Assembly: GCA_006503475.1 (NCBI GenBank)
Contig: RSEH01000017.1
Span: 62,001 to 126,000, forward strand
DNA length: 64,000 bases
Direction of reading: 5' to 3'
Source of the DNA: Stentor roeselii
Taxonomy: Eukaryota > Ciliophora > Heterotrichea > Heterotrichida > Stentoridae
Positions 8,224 through 58,799 of the stretch are shown piece by piece. The notes beneath the pieces were generated by a model that ran no database searches, was not told the origin of the DNA, and saw nothing but the letters and a program-made list of their open reading frames with translations. The position numbers were made by a program, and so were the translations under genes. Positions within the stretch are counted from its first letter, which is position 1; every line of letters starts with the position of its first letter.

Positions 8224-9711
8224 ATGAAACTAATCCTTTTATCTTTTCTCTTATTTCTCTCTCTGGCAGGTGAAGACTATTACAAAATTTTAGGAATTTC
8301 TCGAAACGCAGATGAAAAAGCCATAAAAAAAGCCTTCAAAAAGCTGACCTTAAAATACCACCCAGACAAAAACCTGGACAACAAAGAAGAAGCTGAAAAG
8401 CAATTCATGAAAATAGCAAACGCCTACGAAGTCCTCTCCGATGCCGAAAAGCGTAAAATATACGACGCTCACGGTGAAGAAGGTTTAAAGCAAAATGCCC
8501 AAAATCATCAACATTCAGGTCACCCTTTTTCAGCTGAAAACATTTTTTCTCAGTTCTTCAGAGGCGGTGGAGGAAAAGGAGGAGGTTTTCATTTTAACTT
8601 TGACATGGGAGGAGGTGGCTTTCAACAAGGATTTCAGCAGAACTTCCATCAACAACAAGAGACTCACGATCCTTTATACGAAAAGTCAGACGTCATCGAG
8701 TTAAACTTGGGAAACTTGAAACTTTTATACAAGCGGAACGAGGTCTGGATGGTAAAGTTCTACAAACTTTCAGATAAGAAGTCAAGAGACTTGAAAGACG
8801 AATGGACCAACCTCGCTAATAAGTTATACGGAATCGTCAAAATCGCCGCTGTCAACTGTGACGATGAGGAAGAACTCTGTGAAGAATACGACGTCAAAGC
8901 CATTCCAACAATTCTTTACTTCCCTGAAAACACTGCACAAAAACATGAGGTCTATAAAGGTGAAAAAAATTATGCAAAAGTCTCAGATTTCGCTGTCTCG
9001 AAAATGCAAAGTTTCGTCAGGTTTGTCAATAACAACAATTTTAATGAATTCTTGGAAAGTGAACCTGAGTCTTGCAAGATTCTTTTATTCACTGAAAAAA
9101 AAACTACTCCTCCTCTGTTGAAAGCTCTTTCGAAGGAGTTTAAAGGGAAGGTTTTGTTTGGAGAGGTCAGGGCCAGTGATTCTGAATTGGTTTCAAGGTT
9201 TTTGGTGAATAAATTTCCTAGTTTGATTGGAATTTCTGATGACGGGGAACAGAGGTTTAATGGGGAATTTAATCGTGATAAGATGGAAAAGTGGGTCAGG
9301 GATTTCATGTATAAAAATTCTGGAAAGAAAGTAGTTGTTAGGGAATTGACTAAAAGTGTTGGACTTTCTGGAAAGTGTGGAATTAATGACTCAGCTCTCT
9401 GCTTTATTTGGTTTATGGAAAAGGATGATAGAATCAGTAAGGATGCACTTGGTAAAGTTGCTAAAAGCTTTGAAAAGGACGCTAGTATCAACTTTTATTG
9501 GCTGGATGTTAACAGGTATAAGAAATATTATGAGAAATTTGAGGGAGATATTGTGGTTTTGAGGGGGAAAAGGAAAAAGTATGTGAAAATTGATTGTGAA
9601 GGGAAAATTGAATGTATTAAGGAAACGGTCACAATGGTTTTATCTGGACTTGGGGATTATAAGAAACTTGAATCGTTACCTGAACTAGTAGAGAGTAAAT
9701 CAGAACTATAA
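8224..9711 (+). CDS. ER DnaJ protein with inactive thioredoxin folds
   Basis: A 495-residue co-chaperone. A signal peptide (residues 1-16) leads directly into a J domain with HPD at 46-48, which would stimulate a lumenal Hsp70. A Gly/Phe/Gln-rich linker follows (about 95-150). Then come what look like three thioredoxin-like folds. The first has [14 protein letters not shown] where the redox CxxC should be, yet keeps the cis-proline region AIPTILYF. The second has FPSLIGI and also no CxxC. So it is not a disulfide enzyme; ERdj5 and DNAJC16 are the closest known layouts. The C-terminus KSEL resembles a KDEL-type retrieval signal. A decayed copy of its 3' end lies about 350 bp downstream. Confidence 0.88.
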
Positions 9712-35930: not shown

Positions 35931-37280
35931 CTAGTTTTTTGACATTTCTGCTAATTGGAAGTAACTTGCCACTGCTTCTCCCACTTGATGTTTCATGTCT
36001 TTTTTTAACTCTCTTCCCAGCCAAAGTCGGTAAATCGCAAGGATCGCGATGATAATGATGATAACAGCGATAACAACGAACCAAAGCCAGCCTGATTTCG
36101 CTTTAGTAGTCCTCGGACTGGGTTTTTTCTTATCTTGGCAATACTCCGGTAGGAATTCCGTGTAATAAGTGGCACAAAGTGCCTCAAGTACCAAGTCAAT
36201 TTCAAGATCACCTCGATAAGTAAGGTTGTTAATGATAATCGCAGGATTGAAAGGGATCCTTTCCTGTCGGTACCAAAGATCCTCTTGTCTCATGACAGAA
36301 TTATCATCAAGATACAAGTCATTCCCTTCAACACTATTTTCAATACACTCCTGCACTTTCTTAACATTAACTCCTGAATTTTTCATGGCCTGTTGAATGC
36401 ATTTATTATTCAAGTCTTGAAAACACTTCTCATAAAACTCGCTGATATAATCGAACCAAATCGAGTAGTCTTTTCCAGCAACTCTATGAATACAAAGCTG
36501 CCTCAAGTCCTCAACGATTGTGTCTTTGCCTTCTAAAGATTCAGTTCCGTCAGGATCATATGCACAGTACCTGCCTCCTGATATGCACTCGTTTTTTAAT
36601 TGACTGAAACCTGACTCTCGGCAGGGTCGACATTCAAATATTGAGTAGTGAGGGGTGAATGTTAATTTGGGAAAAAAACTGATGTATTCTCGAAGGTCTT
36701 TTAATATTTCTAGGGCTGTGTTACTTGAACTTTGCATGAAAATTTTTAGGTCTAGATTCTTGTTTATTGATTTGTTTACTGTGAAGGTTATTGTTAGGAC
36801 TACTTCTGTTTGTCGTGATAAACCGACGAAGTCTCGGATTAAGGAACCGTCTTCTTTTGAGATTAGAAGGGCTGGAATGTTTAAGTTACCTGCTGAGCCG
36901 TTGTCGGACATTATGAAGGAATTTATTTCTTCGTCTTGGTTGTCTACGATTATTACGGCTTTTGCACCGATCTCTTGAGCGTGACGCACTTTTAGGACGA
37001 ATGCGCAGTCCCCTCTATCGATCATCAATATATGAGATGAAAACTGTTCGGCATCTAAAGGCATTAATCTAGAACAACCTAAAGAGTAGCTTCCTTGTTC
37101 CACAACTAATTGACCAGTCAATGTCCTTCCATATTGAGGATTTCCAAAGTTTCCTAATGATACGGGGATCTCACCTTGAGGGTATCTGTTTCTGAACTTT
37201 GTGCTAAGGGTTGATGGTGCGAAAATACGAAGAAATCCTTGAACTTGAGAGAGGAGAAAGATAACTAAGTAGACTCTCAT
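35931..37280 (-). CDS. VSR: Plant-type vacuolar sorting receptor
   Basis: A 449-residue type I membrane protein. Signal peptide 1-16; protease-associated (PA) domain about 40-175 (MIDRGDCAFVLKVRHAQEIGAKAVIIVDN); then a cysteine-rich region diagnostic of VSR/BP80 receptors (FTPHYSIFECRPC, ECISGGRYCAYDPD, VEDLRQLCIHRVAG). A single membrane segment lies near 398-421, and the cytoplasmic tail carries SYFQL, a YxxPhi sorting signal in the place of the plant YMPL. The EGF repeats of plant receptors are missing. It should carry soluble cargo from Golgi to lysosomal or vacuolar compartments. Similar receptors sort proteins to secretory granules in other ciliates and in apicomplexans by sortilin-type systems, so a link to granules is possible. 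Its stop is 21 bp from the channel gene. Confidence 0.92.
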   Translation of the reverse strand: MRVYLVIFLLSQVQGFLRIFAPSTLSTKFRNRYPQGEIPVSLGNFGNPQYGRTLTGQLVVEQGSYSLGCSRLMPLDAEQFSSHILMIDRGDCAFVLKVRHAQEIGAKAVIIVDNQDEEINSFIMSDNGSAGNLNIPALLISKEDGSLIRDFVGLSRQTEVVLTITFTVNKSINKNLDLKIFMQSSSNTALEILKDLREYISFFPKLTFTPHYSIFECRPCRESGFSQLKNECISGGRYCAYDPDGTESLEGKDTIVEDLRQLCIHRVAGKDYSIWFDYISEFYEKCFQDLNNKCIQQAMKNSGVNVKKVQECIENSVEGNDLYLDDNSVMRQEDLWYRQERIPFNPAIIINNLTYRGDLEIDLVLEALCATYYTEFLPEYCQDKKKPSPRTTKAKSGWLWFVVIAVIIIIIAILAIYRLWLGRELKKDMKHQVGEAVASYFQLAEMSKN

Positions 37281-45248: not shown

Positions 45249-48200
45249 ATGTTTAAAGAAATTATTTTCATTCGAAATAATAATTTAATGAATATAAATC
45301 CATTAACCAAACGTTTTGGCTTTATTAGAGACCCTCACAAATCGCTTAGTAGCGTATCTGACGACTTTTCATCTGAAGTGCTCATCTCAGAAGTTAGGTC
45401 TTCAAGTCAACTATCAAAACTATACAAATCAAATTCAAGTAAGTCGAAACATTCGAAAGAATATACTCGAATGCTTAGTATGAAAGACCTGCAAGGATAT
45501 CTTCGACTAAGGATTAAAAATCGCTTTGAACTTTTAGACTTTGAGAAGGACAAGTTTCCTTTATTTGAAATAAGATGCAGTGTAAAAAGGATTTATTCAG
45601 CAATTTCAGAAATTTTCTTATTCATTATTAGCACCTGGTTGTTTGAGTTAATTACTTTAATGGTAATTATCTTAAATACCTTGGTGCTTTCACTTGATGG
45701 ACAACTTGATAACCAGAGCAGTTCATTAGAGATGTTTTTTATCTATTTTTATTCAATTGAAAGTTGTATGAAAATAATCGCTCTTGGCTTGATTTCAGGA
45801 AAATCATCTTATTTTAGAGATATTTTAAATATTATCGATTTTATCATTGTTGTAACTTCTTGGGTTGAAATCAATGCAGGAGCTGGGATAAAATTATCAG
45901 CTCTTAGAATTTTCAGAATAATTCGCCCTTTAAAAAGCATAAGTTCTGTGAAAGGTCTTCGATCAATAATAAAATCTCTCGGAAATTCTTTGCAACCTTT
46001 ACTCTCAGCTTTAGTCCTGATAACATTTTTCGTATTAATATTTTCAATAATCGGTTTACAACTGTGGCTTGGTTACTTTACTCAAAGATGTTTCGACATC
46101 CATACAGGAACATTTTCTTCTCAACTTTGCGGATCTGAAGACTGTCCAACGCCTTTCATCTGTGCAAAGTCTTTAGAAAATCCAAATTTCGGAACAGTGA
46201 ATTTCGACAATATTTTTTCATCATTAATAAATGTTTTCATGTGCATAACCCTTGAAGGTTGGACAAATATCATGAACTATGCGACAGACACTTATAGTTT
46301 TTATTCTTTTATTTATTTCGTGATGCTTGAGTTAATCGGGGCGAATATCATCGTGAATCTGACTCTTGCAATCATCACAAGTTCCTTTTGTGGGATTATC
46401 TCTGAAGAAAGCAATAAAAATTCACACGTCTCTGAAGAAATCAAGGAAAAAGTTGAATTGAAAATCAAGGAAATGTTGAAAAGTCTTGTTCGAGGATTGG
46501 ATAAGACTGAAATTTATGCTTTTGATAATGAGGAAAAGCTTTTTACGAAAAAATTTCGAAGAAGGCCGGGAATTTCGAATACTGTCAGAGAACCTAATAG
46601 TTTTTCCATGCTTGCTGAAGAAAATCAAGGTTTTCATGATGATGAATTCAGAACCAAGAAAAATTTAACTGTTTCAAATCGCGCTATTAGGGGATTCCCT
46701 GATTCTAGCAAAATCATGGAGTACTCTTTTGAATATCCTCATGATTTCAAAGCGAAACTTGGCGATTTCCGCACCTTAGCTGAAGAAAGAAGTGAAGAAT
46801 CGAAAAATGTTATGATCTTCTTGAAAATGTACGTAAAGACTTTAAAAATCAACAAAGAAACAGCGGAATTTGTGATTAATGAGCGAATTTCTCTGAAAAT
46901 TTTGGTTTTCGAGACAGATCTAGAGTTTAAACTAGAACCAGACAGTAAATCCGATGTTTTATTTTCAAATTCAATTCAGGATCTAAAGTCAGATCCAGTT
47001 TTTTACTCTTTTCAAAACATCCCCTCCTTTCTTCTCGCACGGCAAGAAAACCTAGAAAAACTAAAAAATCATTACAACGAACACAAAACAACTTTAAGTC
47101 TATTCCACTATCTTTCAATGTCTCACCAGCGAAAACAAGTATTTTCTATAATGGTCTTCAACGTTCAGAAGTTAATTCGAAGTCTCAACAATTCAAACGA
47201 CACCCAAGACAAAAACATCTACAAAGAGATAAACCCAGAAGCTCCCATCATTTACAATGACTCTTGGTTTATTTTTCCTTCACCAAACAGCACTTTTTTG
47301 AATAAGTTTCAAGAGTTTGTAGGAAAAATCATGAAAACTAAAACTGCGAATTGGCTTTCAACAATTGCGATTATTCTTAATACTGCTACCTTGGCTGTTG
47401 ACCATTATGGGATCTCTGAAGCGATGAGCAAGGTTTTGTTTACTACAAACTCGGTTTTTACTTATCTTTTTGTTGTGGAAACAAGCTTGAGACTGGTTGG
47501 AACTGGCTTTGTTGAGTATTTTCGAGATAAAATGAATTATTTTGATACAGTTGTCATCATTTTAAGCATTATTGAGTTTTTTATAGCATCTGGAACAAGT
47601 TTTTCGGCTTTTAGGGTTATTCGTGTTTTTCGTATTATCAGAGTATTGAAGATTGCAAGGATTTTTAGATATTTGACGTCGATTTCGCTTATTTTGCAGA
47701 CTTTGTCGAATTCGGTTTCGAGGTTTTTTTATCTTATTTTTTTCTTGGCTATTCTTTTGATTGTTTTTAGTTTACTTGGAATTCAGATTTTTAGAGGGAA
47801 TTTTGAGTTCTCGGAAGGACTTCCTAGAGCTAATTTTGAGAATTTTTATTCAGCTGTGCTTGCGATGTTTCAAGTTTTGTCTACTGAGAATTGGAATGAT
47901 GTATTAACTTCAAGTATTAGGTACCATCCCGCAAGTTCAATTTTTTTAGTTTCCTGGATAATTCTCGGTAACTTCATATTCATGAACCTCGTGCTAGCAA
48001 TTCTAATCCAAGGTTTTGACGAATCAGAAGAAGTAGAAAACGAGAATCTTCTATTTAAACCAAACAAAAACAAGTTATTAACTTTTTTCCAGCGAGACCA
48101 TTCAAATGTCTACGATAGCCGCGGTTCAGTCTTTATTTCTTTGAACTCCTTACGAACAATAAACGAATACAGCCCAAAAAGTTTATTCCTCTTCGAACAG

Positions 48201-50447
48201 CAAAACAAATTCCGTTTATTATCCTTAAAAATCGTATCAAACAAGCGATTTGAGCAGATAATCCTCATTCTAATCGCGATAAGTTCCCTTAAACTAGTCT
48301 GGGATACCTACAACATAAAAGAAACAAATCCAATTTCAATAGAAATTTCTTACTACTTCGATTTTTGCATCACTTTGGTCTTTGCAGCGGAACTTCTTCT
48401 GAAATCCATTAGTTTTGGTTTTGCCTTAAGCGAGTTTTCTTATATAAACGACCATTGGAACAAGTTAGACTTTCTCATTGTTATTATTTCAATCGTCGAC
48501 ATCTCAACTAAAACTTTCAGTCTTCCCGCTATCAAGTCTTTAAGACTTCTAAGAACTTTAAGACCTTTGAAGCTAATCAAGCATAATAATTCCATGAAAG
48601 TTGTAGTGACAGCTTTACTTGACTCACTAGCAGCGATTTTTAACGTTCTTCTTGTGATCATTATTTTTTGGCTTGTTTTTGCAATAATCGGAGTTGATTT
48701 ATTCTCTGGGAAACTTTACTGTTGCAATGTTGAAGGTTATAATAACAGAGAAGAATGTGAAAGCAGCGGATTTGAATGGGTGAACTCGAGGTTTAACTTT
48801 GATAATATAGGAGAAGCGATGATAACTTTATTTGTTGTTATTTCTCAGGAGTCCTGGCCAACGAGGATGTACGAAGGGATTGATGCGAAAGATGCAAATG
48901 TTTGTCCTGAGAAGAATTACAACCCTTTGGCCTCGATTTACTACATCACTTATCTCGTCCTCGGGAACTTCTTCCTCATCAACCTTTTCACAGCAGTGGT
49001 CTTCGAAAAGTTCAACAATGCGAAAAAAAAATCAGTCTCTCCTGCTTACTCTTTTATGAACAAGTCTCAGATACTTTGGATGGAAATGCAAAAACTTATA
49101 TTGGAATCTAGTCCTACTGTAGAAATGCTTCATGTTCCAAGTAATTCTATCAGAAAATGGTTTTATATGATCAGTAAAAGTAAAAGTTTTGAGTTGTTTG
49201 TGATGGTTGTTATTATTTTGAATATTGTTGTCATGTGCTTGCCTTTTGCAGGGGCAAGTTCGGGGTATACTGAAACTCTTGAAATTATTAACCAGTCTTG
49301 TACTTATTTTTTTATTTTGGAGGCAGGGATTAAGTTTGTGGCTCTTGGAAAACATTATTTGAAAAGTAATTGGAACAGATTAGATTGTTTTGTGGTTTTA
49401 TTTTCTATTCTGGAAATTATTTTAAGCAAATTTTTAACGCAGGAAGTGAAGTTGATTAAACAGATACCGCAGATAGTTAGGTTGTTGAGGGTGCTTAGAA
49501 TAGCGAGGATAACTCGGTTGCTGAAAATGTTTATTTATATTCAGAACCTTGTATTTCTACTTGCTCATTCAGTAGGCGCTATTTTAAATGTCCTATCTTT
49601 GCTGTTACTAGTCATGTTCATCTTCGCAATAACGGGAGTCTTTCTATTCTACTCAATTGAAAAAGGCGAGGTTGTGAACGACTTTTACAACTTTTCCAAC
49701 TTTTCATTCGCAATGTTAATAATCTGGAGAATCAGCACAGGTGAAGACTACCCAAGCATAATGTTAGACTGTTCCGAAGGACTAGGTTCAAAATTCGCCG
49801 TTCTTTACTTCATAGTTTTCATAATCACCGTTGACTTCATCGTTCTAGAGTTATTTGTTTCAGTAATTCTTCAGAACTACGAAGATTTTTCAACAAATCC
49901 AAACAGTGTCTTCAAAGTTTTTCACTTCTACTACAAGAAATTCATGAGAATCTGGATAAAGCACTCTTCAAATGAACTTGGAAGAAGAATGCATGACTCA
50001 CACTTAGCCCAGTTCATCTCTGAGATCTCAGCTGAATTCGAATTGAATCAAAATAATTCAAGGGCTTCAATGGTTCTTTTTAAATCGTTGAACCTGGAAA
50101 AAGACAAAAAAGGTTTTCTTTACTTTAACAATGTTCTTTATTACTTGATGAAAAAGAAGTTCTTTCAAAAAGCTTTACCTGAACAACACTCGATTGTTAA
50201 TAGACTTATAAGGAAAAATGAGGAAAGCTCTTTGGTTCAAATGAAAAAAATCAGGAAAAAAATTCTAGCTGAACTTGACGAGATTAAAAAAGAATATGAA
50301 CAGAAAAAGAATAAGTTTTTTTCTATTATTTTAGTCAAAAATGTTTTTACTAGTTGGAAGAAGTACTCGAAAAGGAATAAAAGTTGTGTTAGTGTCACTC
50401 CTTTGTTTACGGAAATTGAATTTCCTGGATATAATTCATTTAATTAA
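45249..50447 (+). CDS. Four-domain voltage-gated calcium channel alpha subunit
   Basis: A single frame of 1,732 residues with four repeats of six membrane segments. Each repeat has an Arg/Lys ladder in its fourth segment, for example ALRIFRIIRPLKS in I, FRVIRVFRIIRVLKI in II, LRLLRTLRPLKL in III and VRLLRVLRIARITRLLK in IV. The selectivity residues read TLEGW (near 334), STENW (near 879), SQESW (near 1199) and STGEDY (near 1497), giving E-E-E-E, the calcium-selective pattern of Cav channels, not the DEKA of animal sodium channels. In ciliates such channels sit in the ciliary membrane and drive reversal of beating. No clear IQ motif is seen in the short C-terminal tail. No intron. Confidence 0.94.
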   Translation: MFKEIIFIRNNNLMNINPLTKRFGFIRDPHKSLSSVSDDFSSEVLISEVRSSSQLSKLYKSNSSKSKHSKEYTRMLSMKDLQGYLRLRIKNRFELLDFEKDKFPLFEIRCSVKRIYSAISEIFLFIISTWLFELITLMVIILNTLVLSLDGQLDNQSSSLEMFFIYFYSIESCMKIIALGLISGKSSYFRDILNIIDFIIVVTSWVEINAGAGIKLSALRIFRIIRPLKSISSVKGLRSIIKSLGNSLQPLLSALVLITFFVLIFSIIGLQLWLGYFTQRCFDIHTGTFSSQLCGSEDCPTPFICAKSLENPNFGTVNFDNIFSSLINVFMCITLEGWTNIMNYATDTYSFYSFIYFVMLELIGANIIVNLTLAIITSSFCGIISEESNKNSHVSEEIKEKVELKIKEMLKSLVRGLDKTEIYAFDNEEKLFTKKFRRRPGISNTVREPNSFSMLAEENQGFHDDEFRTKKNLTVSNRAIRGFPDSSKIMEYSFEYPHDFKAKLGDFRTLAEERSEESKNVMIFLKMYVKTLKINKETAEFVINERISLKILVFETDLEFKLEPDSKSDVLFSNSIQDLKSDPVFYSFQNIPSFLLARQENLEKLKNHYNEHKTTLSLFHYLSMSHQRKQVFSIMVFNVQKLIRSLNNSNDTQDKNIYKEINPEAPIIYNDSWFIFPSPNSTFLNKFQEFVGKIMKTKTANWLSTIAIILNTATLAVDHYGISEAMSKVLFTTNSVFTYLFVVETSLRLVGTGFVEYFRDKMNYFDTVVIILSIIEFFIASGTSFSAFRVIRVFRIIRVLKIARIFRYLTSISLILQTLSNSVSRFFYLIFFLAILLIVFSLLGIQIFRGNFEFSEGLPRANFENFYSAVLAMFQVLSTENWNDVLTSSIRYHPASSIFLVSWIILGNFIFMNLVLAILIQGFDESEEVENENLLFKPNKNKLLTFFQRDHSNVYDSRGSVFISLNSLRTINEYSPKSLFLFEQQNKFRLLSLKIVSNKRFEQIILILIAISSLKLVWDTYNIKETNPISIEISYYFDFCITLVFAAELLLKSISFGFALSEFSYINDHWNKLDFLIVIISIVDISTKTFSLPAIKSLRLLRTLRPLKLIKHNNSMKVVVTALLDSLAAIFNVLLVIIIFWLVFAIIGVDLFSGKLYCCNVEGYNNREECESSGFEWVNSRFNFDNIGEAMITLFVVISQESWPTRMYEGIDAKDANVCPEKNYNPLASIYYITYLVLGNFFLINLFTAVVFEKFNNAKKKSVSPAYSFMNKSQILWMEMQKLILESSPTVEMLHVPSNSIRKWFYMISKSKSFELFVMVVIILNIVVMCLPFAGASSGYTETLEIINQSCTYFFILEAGIKFVALGKHYLKSNWNRLDCFVVLFSILEIILSKFLTQEVKLIKQIPQIVRLLRVLRIARITRLLKMFIYIQNLVFLLAHSVGAILNVLSLLLLVMFIFAITGVFLFYSIEKGEVVNDFYNFSNFSFAMLIIWRISTGEDYPSIMLDCSEGLGSKFAVLYFIVFIITVDFIVLELFVSVILQNYEDFSTNPNSVFKVFHFYYKKFMRIWIKHSSNELGRRMHDSHLAQFISEISAEFELNQNNSRASMVLFKSLNLEKDKKGFLYFNNVLYYLMKKKFFQKALPEQHSIVNRLIRKNEESSLVQMKKIRKKILAELDEIKKEYEQKKNKFFSIILVKNVFTSWKKYSKRNKSCVSVTPLFTEIEFPGYNSFN

Positions 50448-54442: not shown

Positions 54443-54947
54443 TATAATTATTTAATTTTAGATGTGATTTGTTAAGAGAAGTGAATAATTTAGATGTGAT
54501 TTTCTAAGGAGAAGTAAATAATTTAGATGTGATTTGTTAAGAGAAGTGAATAATTTAGATGTGATTTTCTAAGGAGAAGTAAATAATTTAGATTTGATTT
54601 GTTTTGAGAAGTTAATAATTTCATTTTAGATGTGATTGTTTAAGGAGAAGAGAACATGAGAAGAGTGATTAAAATATGGTTTTTGGTATCTAATGAATGC
54701 TTTAGTGAGAATTTGTTCATTAAACAAACTGAATAAATCTCATAATTTATCTATAAAATTTCACTGTCGCTTTTAATCTTTATATAAATTGGAAACAGAA
54801 AAATAAATCCTCACCAGCAAATAATCAAATTTCCTCCAGACAATAAAACACTTTAAAAATAATCATAATCTTCAAACCCTAAAAAAATCCCATCTCTCTA
54901 ATCCTTAAAATTAATTTCTGAATTACTACTACCCTTTCACTCTATTA
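54443..54947. other. Intergenic with minisatellite
   Basis: A 505-bp spacer between convergent genes. The left 200 bp is the minisatellite listed separately. The right part is AT-rich, with CCCT-like pyrimidine tracts near the minus-strand gene's stop. No coding relic was seen. Confidence 0.6.
54459..54650 (+). repeat. 32/33-bp minisatellite, two alternating variants
   Basis: Six copies of a unit beginning GATGTGATT start at 54461, 54493, 54526, 54558, 54591 and 54629. Two variants alternate, one with GTTAAGAGAAGTGAATAATT and one with TCTAAGGAGAAGTAAATAAT, so the true repeat is a dimer of about 65 bp. The last copies are worn. It lies just after the CEP135-like stop codon. Confidence 0.88.
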
Positions 54948-56153: not shown

Positions 56154-56654
56154 GGATTAATGGGTTTATAACTGAATTCTTTATATTTTTCTTATAACTA
56201 GTGAATATCGTTCTTATGTGAGAGGATGATTTTAGTTGAGGATTATTTGGTTGATGAGGATTTTAGGTTAGATTAGAAGGACTGATGGATAAAGAAATTA
56301 GTTTCAATTAAGAATGATTTAAAAAGAAAATCTTATAATAATATAGTTTAATATTTAGTGAGGTTTTGAAAATGGAAGATTACACATTTAACTGAAGGAA
56401 TCCTTAAAAATTATTTAGGATTAAATCATTTGATTACCTAAAGAATGATTTACTATCAGGACTATTATCATTCAATAGTAAATAAAATTTAATTTGAATT
56501 TATTCAAATTTACAATGAATTGAAAGCTATAAAAACTTAATATTTTAATCTCATTCCTCTGCCACTAAAGATTACTTAATTCACCGAATAAAATTTTTGA
56601 TCCCGCCTAGAAAAGTCATATTTAAAATTCAAAGAGCCGTTTCCAACACTAATA
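56154..56654. other. Intergenic, divergent genes
   Basis: A 501-bp AT-rich spacer, long for this window, between the coiled-coil gene and the secreted heptad-repeat gene. No open frame, hairpin or repeat stands out. Its length may mean a fuller promoter for the secreted protein. Confidence 0.55.
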
Positions 56655-58799
56655 ATGGCTTTAAACACAATTTTTTTTTCTTTACTAATAGTCAAACAAA
56701 ACGCATTTCAAACAGAATCCCAAAGTGCTTTATCACATCTTCTCCTACCAGGAGTCGAATTGATTCAAATGATGCGTTATCCAGAAGACGAATGCGAATG
56801 TGTCGATGAAGACAACTGTCTAAGTCACGTTAAGGTTGAAGTCAAATGTAAAAATGGGATTTGCTCAGTCACGGACAACTCAGAAACTAAAGAATTTCAA
56901 CTTTACTTTGAAATGGAGACGTTAGAAGAAGATGCAGGGAATTGTTGTCAAGTTGAGTCAAGTGCCTCGGAAATTGAATCTTCGAGTTCTTTGACCCTTG
57001 ATTCTCTTGAATCTCAAGAATCTTCTTTGCTTTCTGAACTGGATTCTTTGAAGTCTTTGGAAAGTTCTTTAAAATCTGAACTTCATTCAGTTGAAAGTGA
57101 AGAGGATAGTATTGAGCATACCTTAAGCTCAGTAGAAGATGAGGAAGATGATTTAGAGCATGAGGAGGATTCATTAGAAAGTAGCAAAGATGATCTAACT
57201 AGCAAACTTGATAGTTTAGAATCAGAGGAAGACAGTCTTGAAGATGATCTCGATAGTCTTGAGTCAGAAGAAGATAGCCTTTTAAGCCAATTAAGTTCAT
57301 ATGAGGACTCTTCATTTCAAATCGATTCATCAATATCAAGTGAGGTAGAAAGTTTAAAATCAGAGATAGATTCACTTGAAAATTCTCTTTCTTCATTGGA
57401 TAGCGAAATTTCATCATTAGAAAGTGAGTTAGATTCTATAGAGAGTGAACTTGAGTCATTAGAGAGCCGAGAATCAAGTATCAATAATGAAATTGATTCT
57501 TTGGAAAGTGAAGAGGATTCTTATGAACAATCTATAGAGAGTCACAACCGTGAACAAGACAGTCTTGAGTCAGAAATAGATTCACTTAATAGCGATGAGG
57601 ATAATCTTCAAAGCCAAATCGATTCTTTAGATTCAGAAGAGGACTCGATTGAAAGTGATATCGATTCTTTAAATAATGACGAAGACTCAATATTAAGCAG
57701 CATAAATTCAATAGAAAGTGAAATATCATCAGTTCAGTCAAAAATTTCAGAAATCACAAGTGATATTGATAGCTTGGATAGTGAGCAATCCAGTGAAATT
57801 CAAGAACTTGAAAGTGAGTTAGATTCTCTAAATTCTGAACTTAGCAGCTTGGTTAGTGAAAGGTCAAGTTTTTACTCAGATCTTGATTCTTTAAGAAGCA
57901 TTGAAAGTGAATTGGAATCAACTCTAAGCAGTCTAATTAGTCAAGAAGAAAGTCTAGAGAGTAGACTAAGTAGCTTAGAATCACTTGAAGAAAGTATCGA
58001 GTCCCATGTTTCATCTCTCGAAAGTGAGGAAGACTCTTTAGAGTCTGCTGAAAGTGTGGTTGAGCCTGAAGAAGATTCTTTAGAGTCAGAACTAGATTCA
58101 TTAGAGAGTCATGAAGATTCACTTGAATCCAAAGAAAATTCTTTAGAGTCACTTTTATCGAGTCTAAAGAATGATGAAAGTGAAATTGAAGAACAAATTT
58201 CAAGTCTTGAGAGTGATCTCGATTCAATTTTATCTGATGAAGACTCTCGTTACAGTATTCCTTCATCCTTACAAAGCGATTTCGATTCATTAGTAAGTGA
58301 AATTAGCTCAATAAATTCAGAAGAAGATGATTTGATAAGTAGGATTGAGAGTCTCGACTCAGAGGAAGATAGTCTTGAAAGTGAAATTGAAAGCATTGAA
58401 AAAGATATCGACTCAATTCAGTCAGATGAAGATGAAGTGGAGGATGAAGAAGATTCAATTGAAAGCTCACTTGAATCAGTCGATCACGAGGAAGATAGTC
58501 TTCAAAGCCGAATAGAATCCTTAGACTCAGAGGAAGATTCAATTGAAAGCGAAATCGAGTCAATAAACTCTGAAGAAGATAGTTTAAAGCATGAAAGTTC
58601 TGAATCAAGTTCTACTTCTTGTGATTTTCCATACCTGAAGCTGGTTTGTGAAGGATTTAAATGCAGGGTAACAGATGAAAATGGAGAAAGAGAGATTTCT
58701 TTGGCAGAAGTAGGACAAGATTGTGTGAATCAATACACTCTTCAAGTAGTTTGCGATGAACATGGATGTGAAGTTGTGGCTGTACCAATGAGACATTAG
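56655..58799 (+). CDS. Secreted acidic heptad-repeat protein with Cys domains
   Basis: A 714-residue protein with a hydrophobic start (MALNTIFFSLLIV) that suggests a signal peptide. Residues about 45-98 are Cys-rich. Residues about 100-650 are some 75 nearly unbroken heptads of S-[LI]-E-S-E-[EIL]-D type (SLESEED, SLDSEID, SIESELD), so almost only S, E, D, L and I. Hydrophobics fall at coiled-coil spacing, often in alternate heptads. Residues 650-714 hold two more Cys units. The three units share C-x4-C after a V/L-rich strand: VKCKNGICSVTD, LVCEGFKCRVTD and VVCDEHGCEVV. The repeats contain dozens of S-x-E sites, the target of Fam20C-type secretory kinases. Family unknown; a granule, mucus, cyst or mineral-binding scaffold is inference. 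Confidence 0.85.
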   Translation: MALNTIFFSLLIVKQNAFQTESQSALSHLLLPGVELIQMMRYPEDECECVDEDNCLSHVKVEVKCKNGICSVTDNSETKEFQLYFEMETLEEDAGNCCQVESSASEIESSSSLTLDSLESQESSLLSELDSLKSLESSLKSELHSVESEEDSIEHTLSSVEDEEDDLEHEEDSLESSKDDLTSKLDSLESEEDSLEDDLDSLESEEDSLLSQLSSYEDSSFQIDSSISSEVESLKSEIDSLENSLSSLDSEISSLESELDSIESELESLESRESSINNEIDSLESEEDSYEQSIESHNREQDSLESEIDSLNSDEDNLQSQIDSLDSEEDSIESDIDSLNNDEDSILSSINSIESEISSVQSKISEITSDIDSLDSEQSSEIQELESELDSLNSELSSLVSERSSFYSDLDSLRSIESELESTLSSLISQEESLESRLSSLESLEESIESHVSSLESEEDSLESAESVVEPEEDSLESELDSLESHEDSLESKENSLESLLSSLKNDESEIEEQISSLESDLDSILSDEDSRYSIPSSLQSDFDSLVSEISSINSEEDDLISRIESLDSEEDSLESEIESIEKDIDSIQSDEDEVEDEEDSIESSLESVDHEEDSLQSRIESLDSEEDSIESEIESINSEEDSLKHESSESSSTSCDFPYLKLVCEGFKCRVTDENGEREISLAEVGQDCVNQYTLQVVCDEHGCEVVAVPMRH
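56955..58605 (+). repeat. Protein-level heptad repeats (21-bp frame)
   Basis: About 75 units of 21 bp encode the S-L-E-S-E-E-D type heptads. The DNA copies are diverged and use several serine and leucine codons (AGT, TCA, TCT; TTA, CTT, TTG), so the regularity is stronger in protein than in DNA. That points to selection on the protein rather than a fresh satellite expansion. Confidence 0.8.

What the first reader, a model, noticed from the sequence alone, without database searches (positions are those of the whole stretch)
56655..58799. Secreted scaffold of about 75 Ser/Glu/Asp/Leu heptads between C-x4-C domains
Seen: a likely signal peptide, one Cys-rich unit, about 550 residues of near-perfect S-[LI]-E-S-E-[EIL]-D heptads, then two more Cys units with the same C-x4-C pattern. 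Hydrophobic positions fit a coiled coil, but the surface would be extremely acidic and serine-rich, with dozens of S-x-E sites. Known: S-x-E is the target of Fam20C-type secretory kinases, and acidic phosphorylated secreted proteins bind calcium. Inference: a calcium-dependent rod or gel protein for granules, cyst wall, holdfast or mucus. I know of no described family with this layout.
Basis: partly seen in the sequence, partly recalled or inferred. Interest (0 to 1): 0.8.

Follow-up and report, generated by a model that had tools for sequence, protein, structure and literature searches.

The report
Ciliate secreted acidic rod protein family
A single-celled ciliate carries a family of probably secreted proteins in which long, strongly negative repeat stretches are held between small cysteine-rich end pieces, likely building material of a secretory granule or an extracellular gel, and no match to the end pieces was found in the protein libraries searched.

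Summary
Window 56655-58799 (+) is one 714-aa open frame: a weak signal-peptide-like start, a Cys-rich N-terminal unit, a 536-aa Ser/Glu/Asp/Leu centre of 76 heptads with three register breaks (530 bits; best of 20 shuffles 85), and a C-terminal unit with two more C-x4-C pairs. "Near-perfect" is overstated: the exact motif occurs 7 times.

It is not isolated. The same genome holds four paralogues (2240, 975, 882, 351 aa) with both ends, limited protein but high synonymous divergence, so the family is under selection. In the 351-aa member plain acidic repeats replace the heptads. A related module caps other low-complexity proteins with hydrophobic starts. Nine of 12 such genes share CGTTT just before the ATG, against 0 of 34 control frames (motif chosen after seeing the family). 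CCCTAACA telomeres and TGA stops suggest a heterotrich other than Blepharisma.

Best reading: co-regulated matrix proteins of a secretory granule or extracellular gel, with cross-linking end caps and a polyanionic, mostly coiled-coil core that packs or swells with Ca2+ or pH. Secretion, calcium binding and location are inferred. Fam20C phosphorylation is not supported as a family-wide mechanism.

The parts
56617..56654 (+). promoter-proximal element: CATATTT at 56617 and CGTTTCCAAC starting 17 nt before the ATG; the GATAAAAG seen in C391, C180 and C94 is not present in this copy
   Evidence: CGTTT in the last 26 nt before the ATG in 9 of 12 module or related genes against 0 of 34 control ORFs (motif picked after seeing the family)
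56655..58799 (+). whole ORF, 714 aa, no interruption
   Evidence: ends under purifying selection
56655..56711 (+). putative signal peptide (about residues 1-19), weaker-looking than in the paralogues
   Evidence: (hydropathy only), alignment
56793..56948 (+). N-terminal Cys module (residues 47-98, C-x4-C at 65/70)
   Evidence: predicted strands 62-66, 69-74, 77-82 in a low-confidence model
56967..58574 (+). centre, residues 105-640: 76 Ser/acid/Leu heptads with 3 register breaks; charge per residue -0.31
   Evidence: helices 116-213, 230-461, 474-532, 537-645 in a single-sequence model (10-residue pLDDT means mostly 56-82)
58620..58769 (+). C-terminal domain, residues 656-705: C-x8-C-x4-C-x19-C-x9-C-x4-C, identical Cys spacing in 5 of 5 paralogues
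   Evidence: predicted hairpins, (low confidence)

Best explanation
A co-regulated family of secreted matrix proteins of a heterotrich ciliate. Small cysteine-stapled beta-hairpin modules at both ends act as caps that fold and cross-link. The centre is a length-variable polyanion, in four of five paralogues an alpha-helical coiled coil with acidic residues at 21-37% of core a positions, tending to alternate with hydrophobic ones in three of the four. Proposed working: when the charges are screened by Ca2+ or protons in a secretory granule the cores pack into dense rods; after discharge they repel, hydrate and extend into a gel or fibre network held together at the caps. Shown: layout, heptad register, selection on the ends, the family, the shared promoter element. 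Inferred: secretion, disulfides and cross-linking by the caps, co-regulation, the Ca2+/pH switch, location in cortical granules (extrusomes), mucus or holdfast.
For: Both ends recur together in 5 genes on 5 contigs; Cys spacing of the C end is identical in 5 of 5. Ends: pN 0.17-0.35 against pS 0.49-0.76 (C end) and pN 0.19-0.49 against pS 0.45-0.88 (N end), 10 pairs each. Hydrophobic N-termini in all five and in four related proteins (9 of 9 examined; no control set). Heptads in register far above shuffles in 4 of 4 heptad members. Ser codons at c and f are mixed between TCN and AGY (43/23 and 28/33), which suggests that serine is kept at the protein level rather than by fresh DNA copying. Centres have a charge of -0.31 to -0.37 per residue and at most 2 Gly+Pro. 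g-e' pairs are acid-acid in 25 of 75 and acid-base in 8 of 75 in the window protein. CGTTT just before the ATG in 9 of 12 genes against 0 of 34 (Fisher 2e-7, optimistic because the motif was chosen from these genes and paralogues are not independent). Whole-protein net charge -149 to -665.
Against: No expression, proteomic or localisation data. The signal peptide of this copy looks weak. Granule cargo is an analogy with Grl proteins. The 14-residue alternation is not significant in the 975-aa member (1016 of 5000 permutations). Between heptads the ratio of protein to synonymous change is not low in the 882- and 975-aa members (0.68 and 0.54). C40 lacks several N-end cysteines. Structure models are single-sequence and low confidence. 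Promoter sharing may partly be plain descent; the element is incomplete here and missing or altered in C40, C347_1398 and C517.
Confidence: 0.6

Rival explanations
1. A Fam20C-type secreted phosphoprotein: serines of S-x-E are phosphorylated in the secretory pathway and the phosphates bind Ca2+ to make a cement, cyst wall or similar layer, as proposed for sabellariid worm cement.
For: 57 S-x-E in the centre against 35.4 (sd 4.4) in shuffles, and 302 against 206.8 (sd 9.8) in the 2240-aa paralogue. Serine kept at c and f despite mixed codon families. PMC12621633 (passages seen) describes S-x-E and polyserine as FAM20C targets and suggests Ca2+ complexation by phosphoserine of the cement proteins.
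Against: S-x-E is not enriched in the 882- and 975-aa members, which are instead enriched in S-x-x-[DE] (72 vs 58.4; 95 vs 75.8); the 351-aa member has 5 S-x-E and 7.7% Ser. No Fam20C match in this genome, though controls were silent too. A search for 'Fam20C' with 'ciliate' (also matching 'ciliated') held 10 papers; of the 8 listed none is on ciliates by its title.
Confidence: 0.15
2. Divergent members of the known ciliate Grl/trichocyst-matrix family (granule lattice proteins), which are acidic, Ca2+-binding and coiled-coil.
For: [quoted passage not shown] PMC9159632 (passages): the Grl core expands during exocytosis. The general properties agree.
Against: No Pfam family matches either end. 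The size (up to 2240 aa), the two-ended Cys caps, the Ser-rich heptad and the heptad-free member are not features I know of in Grls (recalled). No Grl sequence was compared.
Confidence: 0.1
3. An intracellular coiled-coil protein (cytoskeletal or cortical), the N-terminal hydrophobic stretch being incidental.
For: The window protein's N-terminal stretch is short and followed by K-Q-N. Long coiled coils are common in ciliate cytoskeletons (general knowledge).
Against: The four paralogues have signal-peptide-like N-termini ending in ISAS, ISAT, INAT and INAT. Six cysteines in fixed spacing at the C end of all five favour an oxidising compartment. Related caps sit on mucin-like and poly-acid proteins that also start with hydrophobic stretches.
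Confidence: 0.1
4. A low-complexity open frame without function, produced by DNA repeat expansion.
For: Tandem repeats are visible at DNA level: short 21- and 42-nt arrays here, longer 42-nt arrays in the C391 paralogue.
Against: Ends conserved at high synonymous divergence. The centre is repetitive in protein but in DNA only in three short stretches. Shared promoter element.
Confidence: 0.02

Closest known systems
Tetrahymena Grl (granule lattice) proteins / Paramecium trichocyst matrix proteins
   Same: Acidic, predicted coiled coils; Grls are stored as a lattice that expands on release (passages of PMC6189453 and PMC9159632).
   Different: Here: conserved Cys caps at both ends, Ser-rich heptads, proteins of 351 to 2240 residues, one member without heptads. 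Pro-protein processing, stated for Grl1p, could not be tested.
Spidroins and gel-forming mucins (recalled, no call)
   Same: Conserved terminal domains around a long repetitive core that varies more than the ends.
   Different: Different cores (acidic coiled coil); the ends match no Pfam family.
Sabellariid worm cement phosphoproteins (PMC12621633, passages)
   Same: Ser-rich, acidic secreted proteins proposed to set with Ca2+.
   Different: There: phosphoserine identified and FAM20C transcripts in the cement cells. Here: heptads, and no evidence for phosphate or kinase.
Pfam coiled-coil models (DUF7310, APG6_N, DUF3450 and others)
   Same: Score above their cut-offs on the centre.
   Different: Many unrelated models match the same heptads and none matches the ends; composition-driven, not membership.

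Membership tests
Grl / trichocyst matrix proteins | acidic protein with predicted coiled coils | tested here: met
Grl / trichocyst matrix proteins | sequence homology to the family | not tested
   no Grl sequence or profile at hand; the ends match no Pfam family
Grl / trichocyst matrix proteins | Ca2+ binding, pro-protein processing, granule location | not testable with these tools
   needs experiment
Fam20C substrates | S-x-E sites above chance across the family | tested here: not met
   enriched in 2 of 4 heptad members, not in the other two; 5 sites in the 351-aa member
Fam20C substrates | a Fam20C kinase in the same genome | tested here: inconclusive
   no match, but no control genome rang either
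Secreted proteins | N-terminal signal peptide | tested here: inconclusive
   hydrophobic stretches in 9 of 9 N-termini examined, weak-looking in the window copy; hydropathy only, no predictor and no control set
Coiled coils | continuous a/d hydrophobic heptad register beyond composition | tested here: met
   530 bits against at most 85 in 20 shuffles; likewise in the 3 other heptad members
The five-gene cap family defined here | N cap and six-Cys C cap with identical C-end spacing | tested here: met
   C end 5 of 5; N cap in 5 of 5, with fewer cysteines in C40, C180 and C94

The most novel reading that the evidence does not exclude
A heterotrich 'cap and core' polymer toolkit: one cysteine-stapled beta-hairpin cap and one promoter element shared by a set of secreted proteins whose cores are interchangeable polymers (Ser/acid coiled coil, poly-Asp/Glu, Ser-Gly, mucin-like Ser/Thr). 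In the coiled-coil type, acidic residues at core position a of roughly a third of the heptads, tending to alternate with hydrophobic ones, make the rod a Ca2+- or pH-driven switch between a packed and a swollen state.
Probability: 0.35. Interest if true: 0.8.

Novelty: new variant of a known kind. Interest (0 to 1): 0.6.

Why it matters
As far as I know the proteins of heterotrich secretory material (cortical granules, holdfast glue, mucus) are little studied; the one paper on it opened here treats small molecules (PMC9774955, passages). A five-gene family with a shared promoter element and clear caps gives ready candidates. The swap of a heptad core for a plain acidic core between the same caps in one genome is a natural experiment on what the core must be: charged and extended, not necessarily helical. 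A coiled coil with recurrent acidic core positions and few basic residues would be a simple design for a charge-switched protein gel.

Tried and rejected
Whole-protein Pfam hits (83 families up to E 10, 25 shown, mostly coiled-coil or helical models, best DUF7310 3.5e-24) were rejected as heptad-driven: the ends alone give nothing better than E 0.14. PDB by sequence: C end no match up to E 10, N end one at E 0.81. Foldseek of the low-confidence C-end model: best E 0.25, none at or below 0.001. GTDB contigs and IMG/VR scanned with the C-end alignment: 71 and 36 pattern hits, none confirmed; neither collection is meant to hold ciliates. Fam20C in the own genome: nothing, uninformative. Ribosomal protein uL3 against the PDB did not place the organism (the best entries, and 4v8p, which I recall as Tetrahymena and which is near the end of the 60 shown, differ little). 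Tiny-intron pattern: 475 against 255 in the reversed control, suggestive only. In one search (27 matches; 62 of 2287 candidates scored, so a lower bound) the hits on C402, C127, C21, C257, C281, C102, C88 and C441 score 40 bits or less; only C402 was opened, a 224-aa heptad protein in which I see no such caps. Profile-profile match of N end to C end: probability 46.8, E 2e-4 over 25 columns: kinship of the two ends is likely but not proven. The C349 hit (E 1.73) lies in an unlike protein and was rejected. A C348 relative of the mucin-like N-terminus was not fetched.

Full report
WHAT IS THERE. The frame at 56655-58799 (+) is open over 714 codons from ATG to TAG. Residues 5-13 are the hydrophobic run TIFFSLLIV. 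Residues 47-98 hold seven Cys with one C-x4-C. Residues 105-640 are the repetitive centre. Residues 656-705 hold six Cys with two C-x4-C. The protein is 24.6% Ser, 20.0% Glu, 12.5% Leu, 10.4% Asp, has no Trp and a net charge of -188.

THE HEPTADS ARE REAL. A seven-state register model fitted to the centre needs only 3 breaks in 536 residues and scores 530 bits, against a mean of 59 and a maximum of 85 in 20 shuffles. Hydrophobic autocorrelation relative to chance is 2.5 at lag 7 and 2.9 at lag 14. At position a, hydrophobic and other residues alternate in successive heptads (r = -0.45; 0 of 5000 permutations), as in the 2240- and 882-aa paralogues (0 of 5000 each) but not in the 975-aa one (1016 of 5000). 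Acidic residues take 28 of 76 a positions here, 86 of 293, 29 of 100 and 21 of 98 in the others. At DNA level only three short stretches of the centre are reported as tandem repeats, and Ser codons at c and f mix TCN and AGY (43/23 and 28/33). Between heptads pS is 0.745 and pN 0.523 here; the ratio is less telling in the 882- and 975-aa members (dN/dS 0.68 and 0.54). I infer that the pattern is old and held at protein level.

THE FAMILY. The window lies in G000:C91, part of a 44.4-Mb assembly of 522 contigs. Full-length and end-only searches find four more genes with both ends: C391 (2240 aa), C180 (975 aa), C40 (882 aa), C94 (351 aa). Either C-end query finds these five and no others up to E 10 (the tool's first look makes this a lower bound). 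The C end keeps C-x8-C-x4-C-x19-C-x9-C-x4-C in 5 of 5, with 23 of 68 columns invariant. The N end is looser, 16 of 122 columns invariant, and C40 lacks the first cysteines. Over ten pairs at each end synonymous differences are high (pS 0.45-0.88; dS from 0.68 for the closest pair C180/C94 to beyond saturation) and protein differences smaller (pN 0.17-0.49): purifying selection. In C94 the centre is not heptads but acidic repeats such as DGDEDEDEV and EQDEDE; C180 has a stretch of seven GDEDEQE repeats after its heptads. What the family keeps is the caps and a long acidic spacer; the coiled coil is the commoner form of the spacer.

THE WIDER SET. The N-end query also reaches, at E 5.5e-5 to 5.5e-3, modules in C99, C153 and C30. 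The C99 module leads to C395 (4.1e-5) and C347 (0.0036, 0.030), and C347 to C517 and further copies on C395 and C347. Where the start is held, these proteins begin with a hydrophobic stretch, and they carry the module at or within 190 residues of the C end: module with a short lead (C99, 117 aa), Ser-Gly repeats (C153, 374 aa), poly-Asp/Glu (C395, 596 aa), Ser then acidic repeats (C347, 1398 aa), mucin-like Ser/Thr/Asn (C347, 4452-aa open frame; C517, 2096-aa open frame). A profile of the nine non-heptad modules alone scores the five cut-out N ends at 27.4 (C180), 22.6 (C94), 19.3 (C391), 15.4 (C40) and 10.2 bits (window), above all 1000 shuffled copies (best 7.6); against the whole proteins the scores are lower (20.0, 16.9, 12.1, 7.6, 5.7) and only C180 and C94 pass the inclusion threshold, though the best stretch is the N end in each. 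The window copy alone is not significant (E 0.31 for 10,000 sequences) and its link to the wider set rests on its paralogues and. The N and C ends of the heptad family may be the same hairpin (hhalign probability 46.8); the single-sequence model draws three similar strands in both.

A SHARED PROMOTER ELEMENT. Upstream of the start codons lies a common block, fullest in C391, C180 and C94 (and nearly so in C99 and C395): CATATTT, about 5 nt, GATAAAAG, about 6 nt, TCCGTTT, AAC, then ATG 17-18 nt after the C of CGTTT. CGTTT within 26 nt of the ATG occurs in 9 of 12 genes: the five heptad-family genes, C99, C153, C395, three C347 genes (one runs off the contig and is included for its N-terminus) and C517 were counted; C30, the first C347 gene and the second C395 gene were not, their starts not being held. 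It occurs in 0 of 34 control ORFs of at least 200 aa from the window and ten loci; 5 of 39 were dropped beforehand for extreme composition, and some controls may be spurious ORFs. Fisher p is 2e-7, which is optimistic: the motif was picked after viewing these genes, and paralogues are not independent. Misses are C40, C347_1398 and C517; the first two have CCGTTA nearby. The window copy has CATATTT and CCGTTT but not GATAAAAG. Part of this may be common descent, but at such synonymous distances kept blocks suggest constraint and co-regulation.

THE HOST. TGA acts as a stop: 4 of 28 long frames end in it, and seven of the eight longest frames hold no or one TGA when it is read as Trp. Two of 20 contig starts are runs of CCCTAACA (C40, C153), the Blepharisma telomere repeat according to PMC9942806 (passages), which also says that Blepharisma reads TGA as Trp. 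The 15-nt intron pattern with A at position 10, as in Stentor (PMC9505925, passages), is 475 against 255 in the reversed control. A heterotrich other than Blepharisma is likely; the species was not determined.

MECHANISM. Shown: acidic, Gly/Pro-poor cores in heptad register; acid-acid g-e' pairs outnumber acid-base pairs 25 to 8 (of 75) here, 159 to 11 (of 290) in C391, 32 to 5 (of 98) in C40 and 44 to 5 (of 96) in C180. Inference: at neutral pH without divalent ions such coils should repel; protons or Ca2+ would allow packing, a secretory granule can supply such conditions, and release would swell the material. Caps at both ends are natural cross-link points; the window protein has 13 Cys, an odd number, so at least one could bond between chains. 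Phosphorylation is possible but no kinase motif is kept: S-x-E is enriched in two members and S-x-x-[DE] in the other two. Structure models: whole protein, mean pLDDT 60.6, pTM 0.20, four long helices; C end alone, pLDDT 61.5, pTM 0.32, hairpins; too weak to carry weight.

COMPARISON. Works like: ciliate granule matrix proteins (Grl) and, in layout, spidroins or mucins (recalled). Member of: no family that could be tested. Papers seen: PMC6189453, PMC9159632, PMC9505925, PMC9942806, PMC9774955 and PMC12621633 as passages; the rest as search listings. That I found no such family in print rests on open-licence papers only: searches (no paper; 11 listed; 12 of 218 listed; 10 of 438 listed; 10 of 2,306 listed), judged by title and start of abstract, and on Pfam and PDB sequences.

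Noticed in passing
L057, L065, L066 (G000:C347) and L068 (G000:C517): Neighbouring genes for giant mucin-like or acidic proteins (4452-, 2096- and 1400-aa open frames) with a shared N-terminus and the C-x4-C module near the C end; probably an expanding gene cluster.
   Followed up: partly
window 56655-58799; L009, L010, L011: Four of the five family proteins, the 2240-aa one included, contain no tryptophan; the 351-aa one has one.
   Followed up: no
window 54457-54621: Tandem array of 65-nt (or 32-nt) units between predicted genes, 2.5 copies at 96% match.
   Followed up: no
window 45249-50447: Uninterrupted 1732-aa frame with four Ion_trans stretches, a four-domain ion channel type.
   Followed up: no
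window 35931-37280 and 8224-9711: A vacuolar-sorting-receptor-like protein (PA + VSR_TRX) and a DnaJ-thioredoxin protein, both suggestive of the secretory pathway.
   Followed up: no
L042 842-2854 and 3638-4996 (G000:C349): Two neighbouring related genes (670 aa and at least 453 aa) with a sulfatase-like look (recalled, not tested).
   Followed up: no
L009 3033-3616 and 3764-4431: Two 42-nt arrays (13.9 copies at 89% and 15.9 copies at 92% match) inside the 2240-aa paralogue: more recent expansion of the 14-residue unit.
   Followed up: partly
L011 2033-4960: The 975-aa paralogue carries both core types in one protein: heptads, then seven GDEDEQE repeats.
   Followed up: no
G000:C357 and C130 (L069, L070): Two near-equal full-length ribosomal protein uL3 genes (590 and 588 bits to the same profile), so recent duplicates or alleles kept apart in the assembly may exist.
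   Followed up: no
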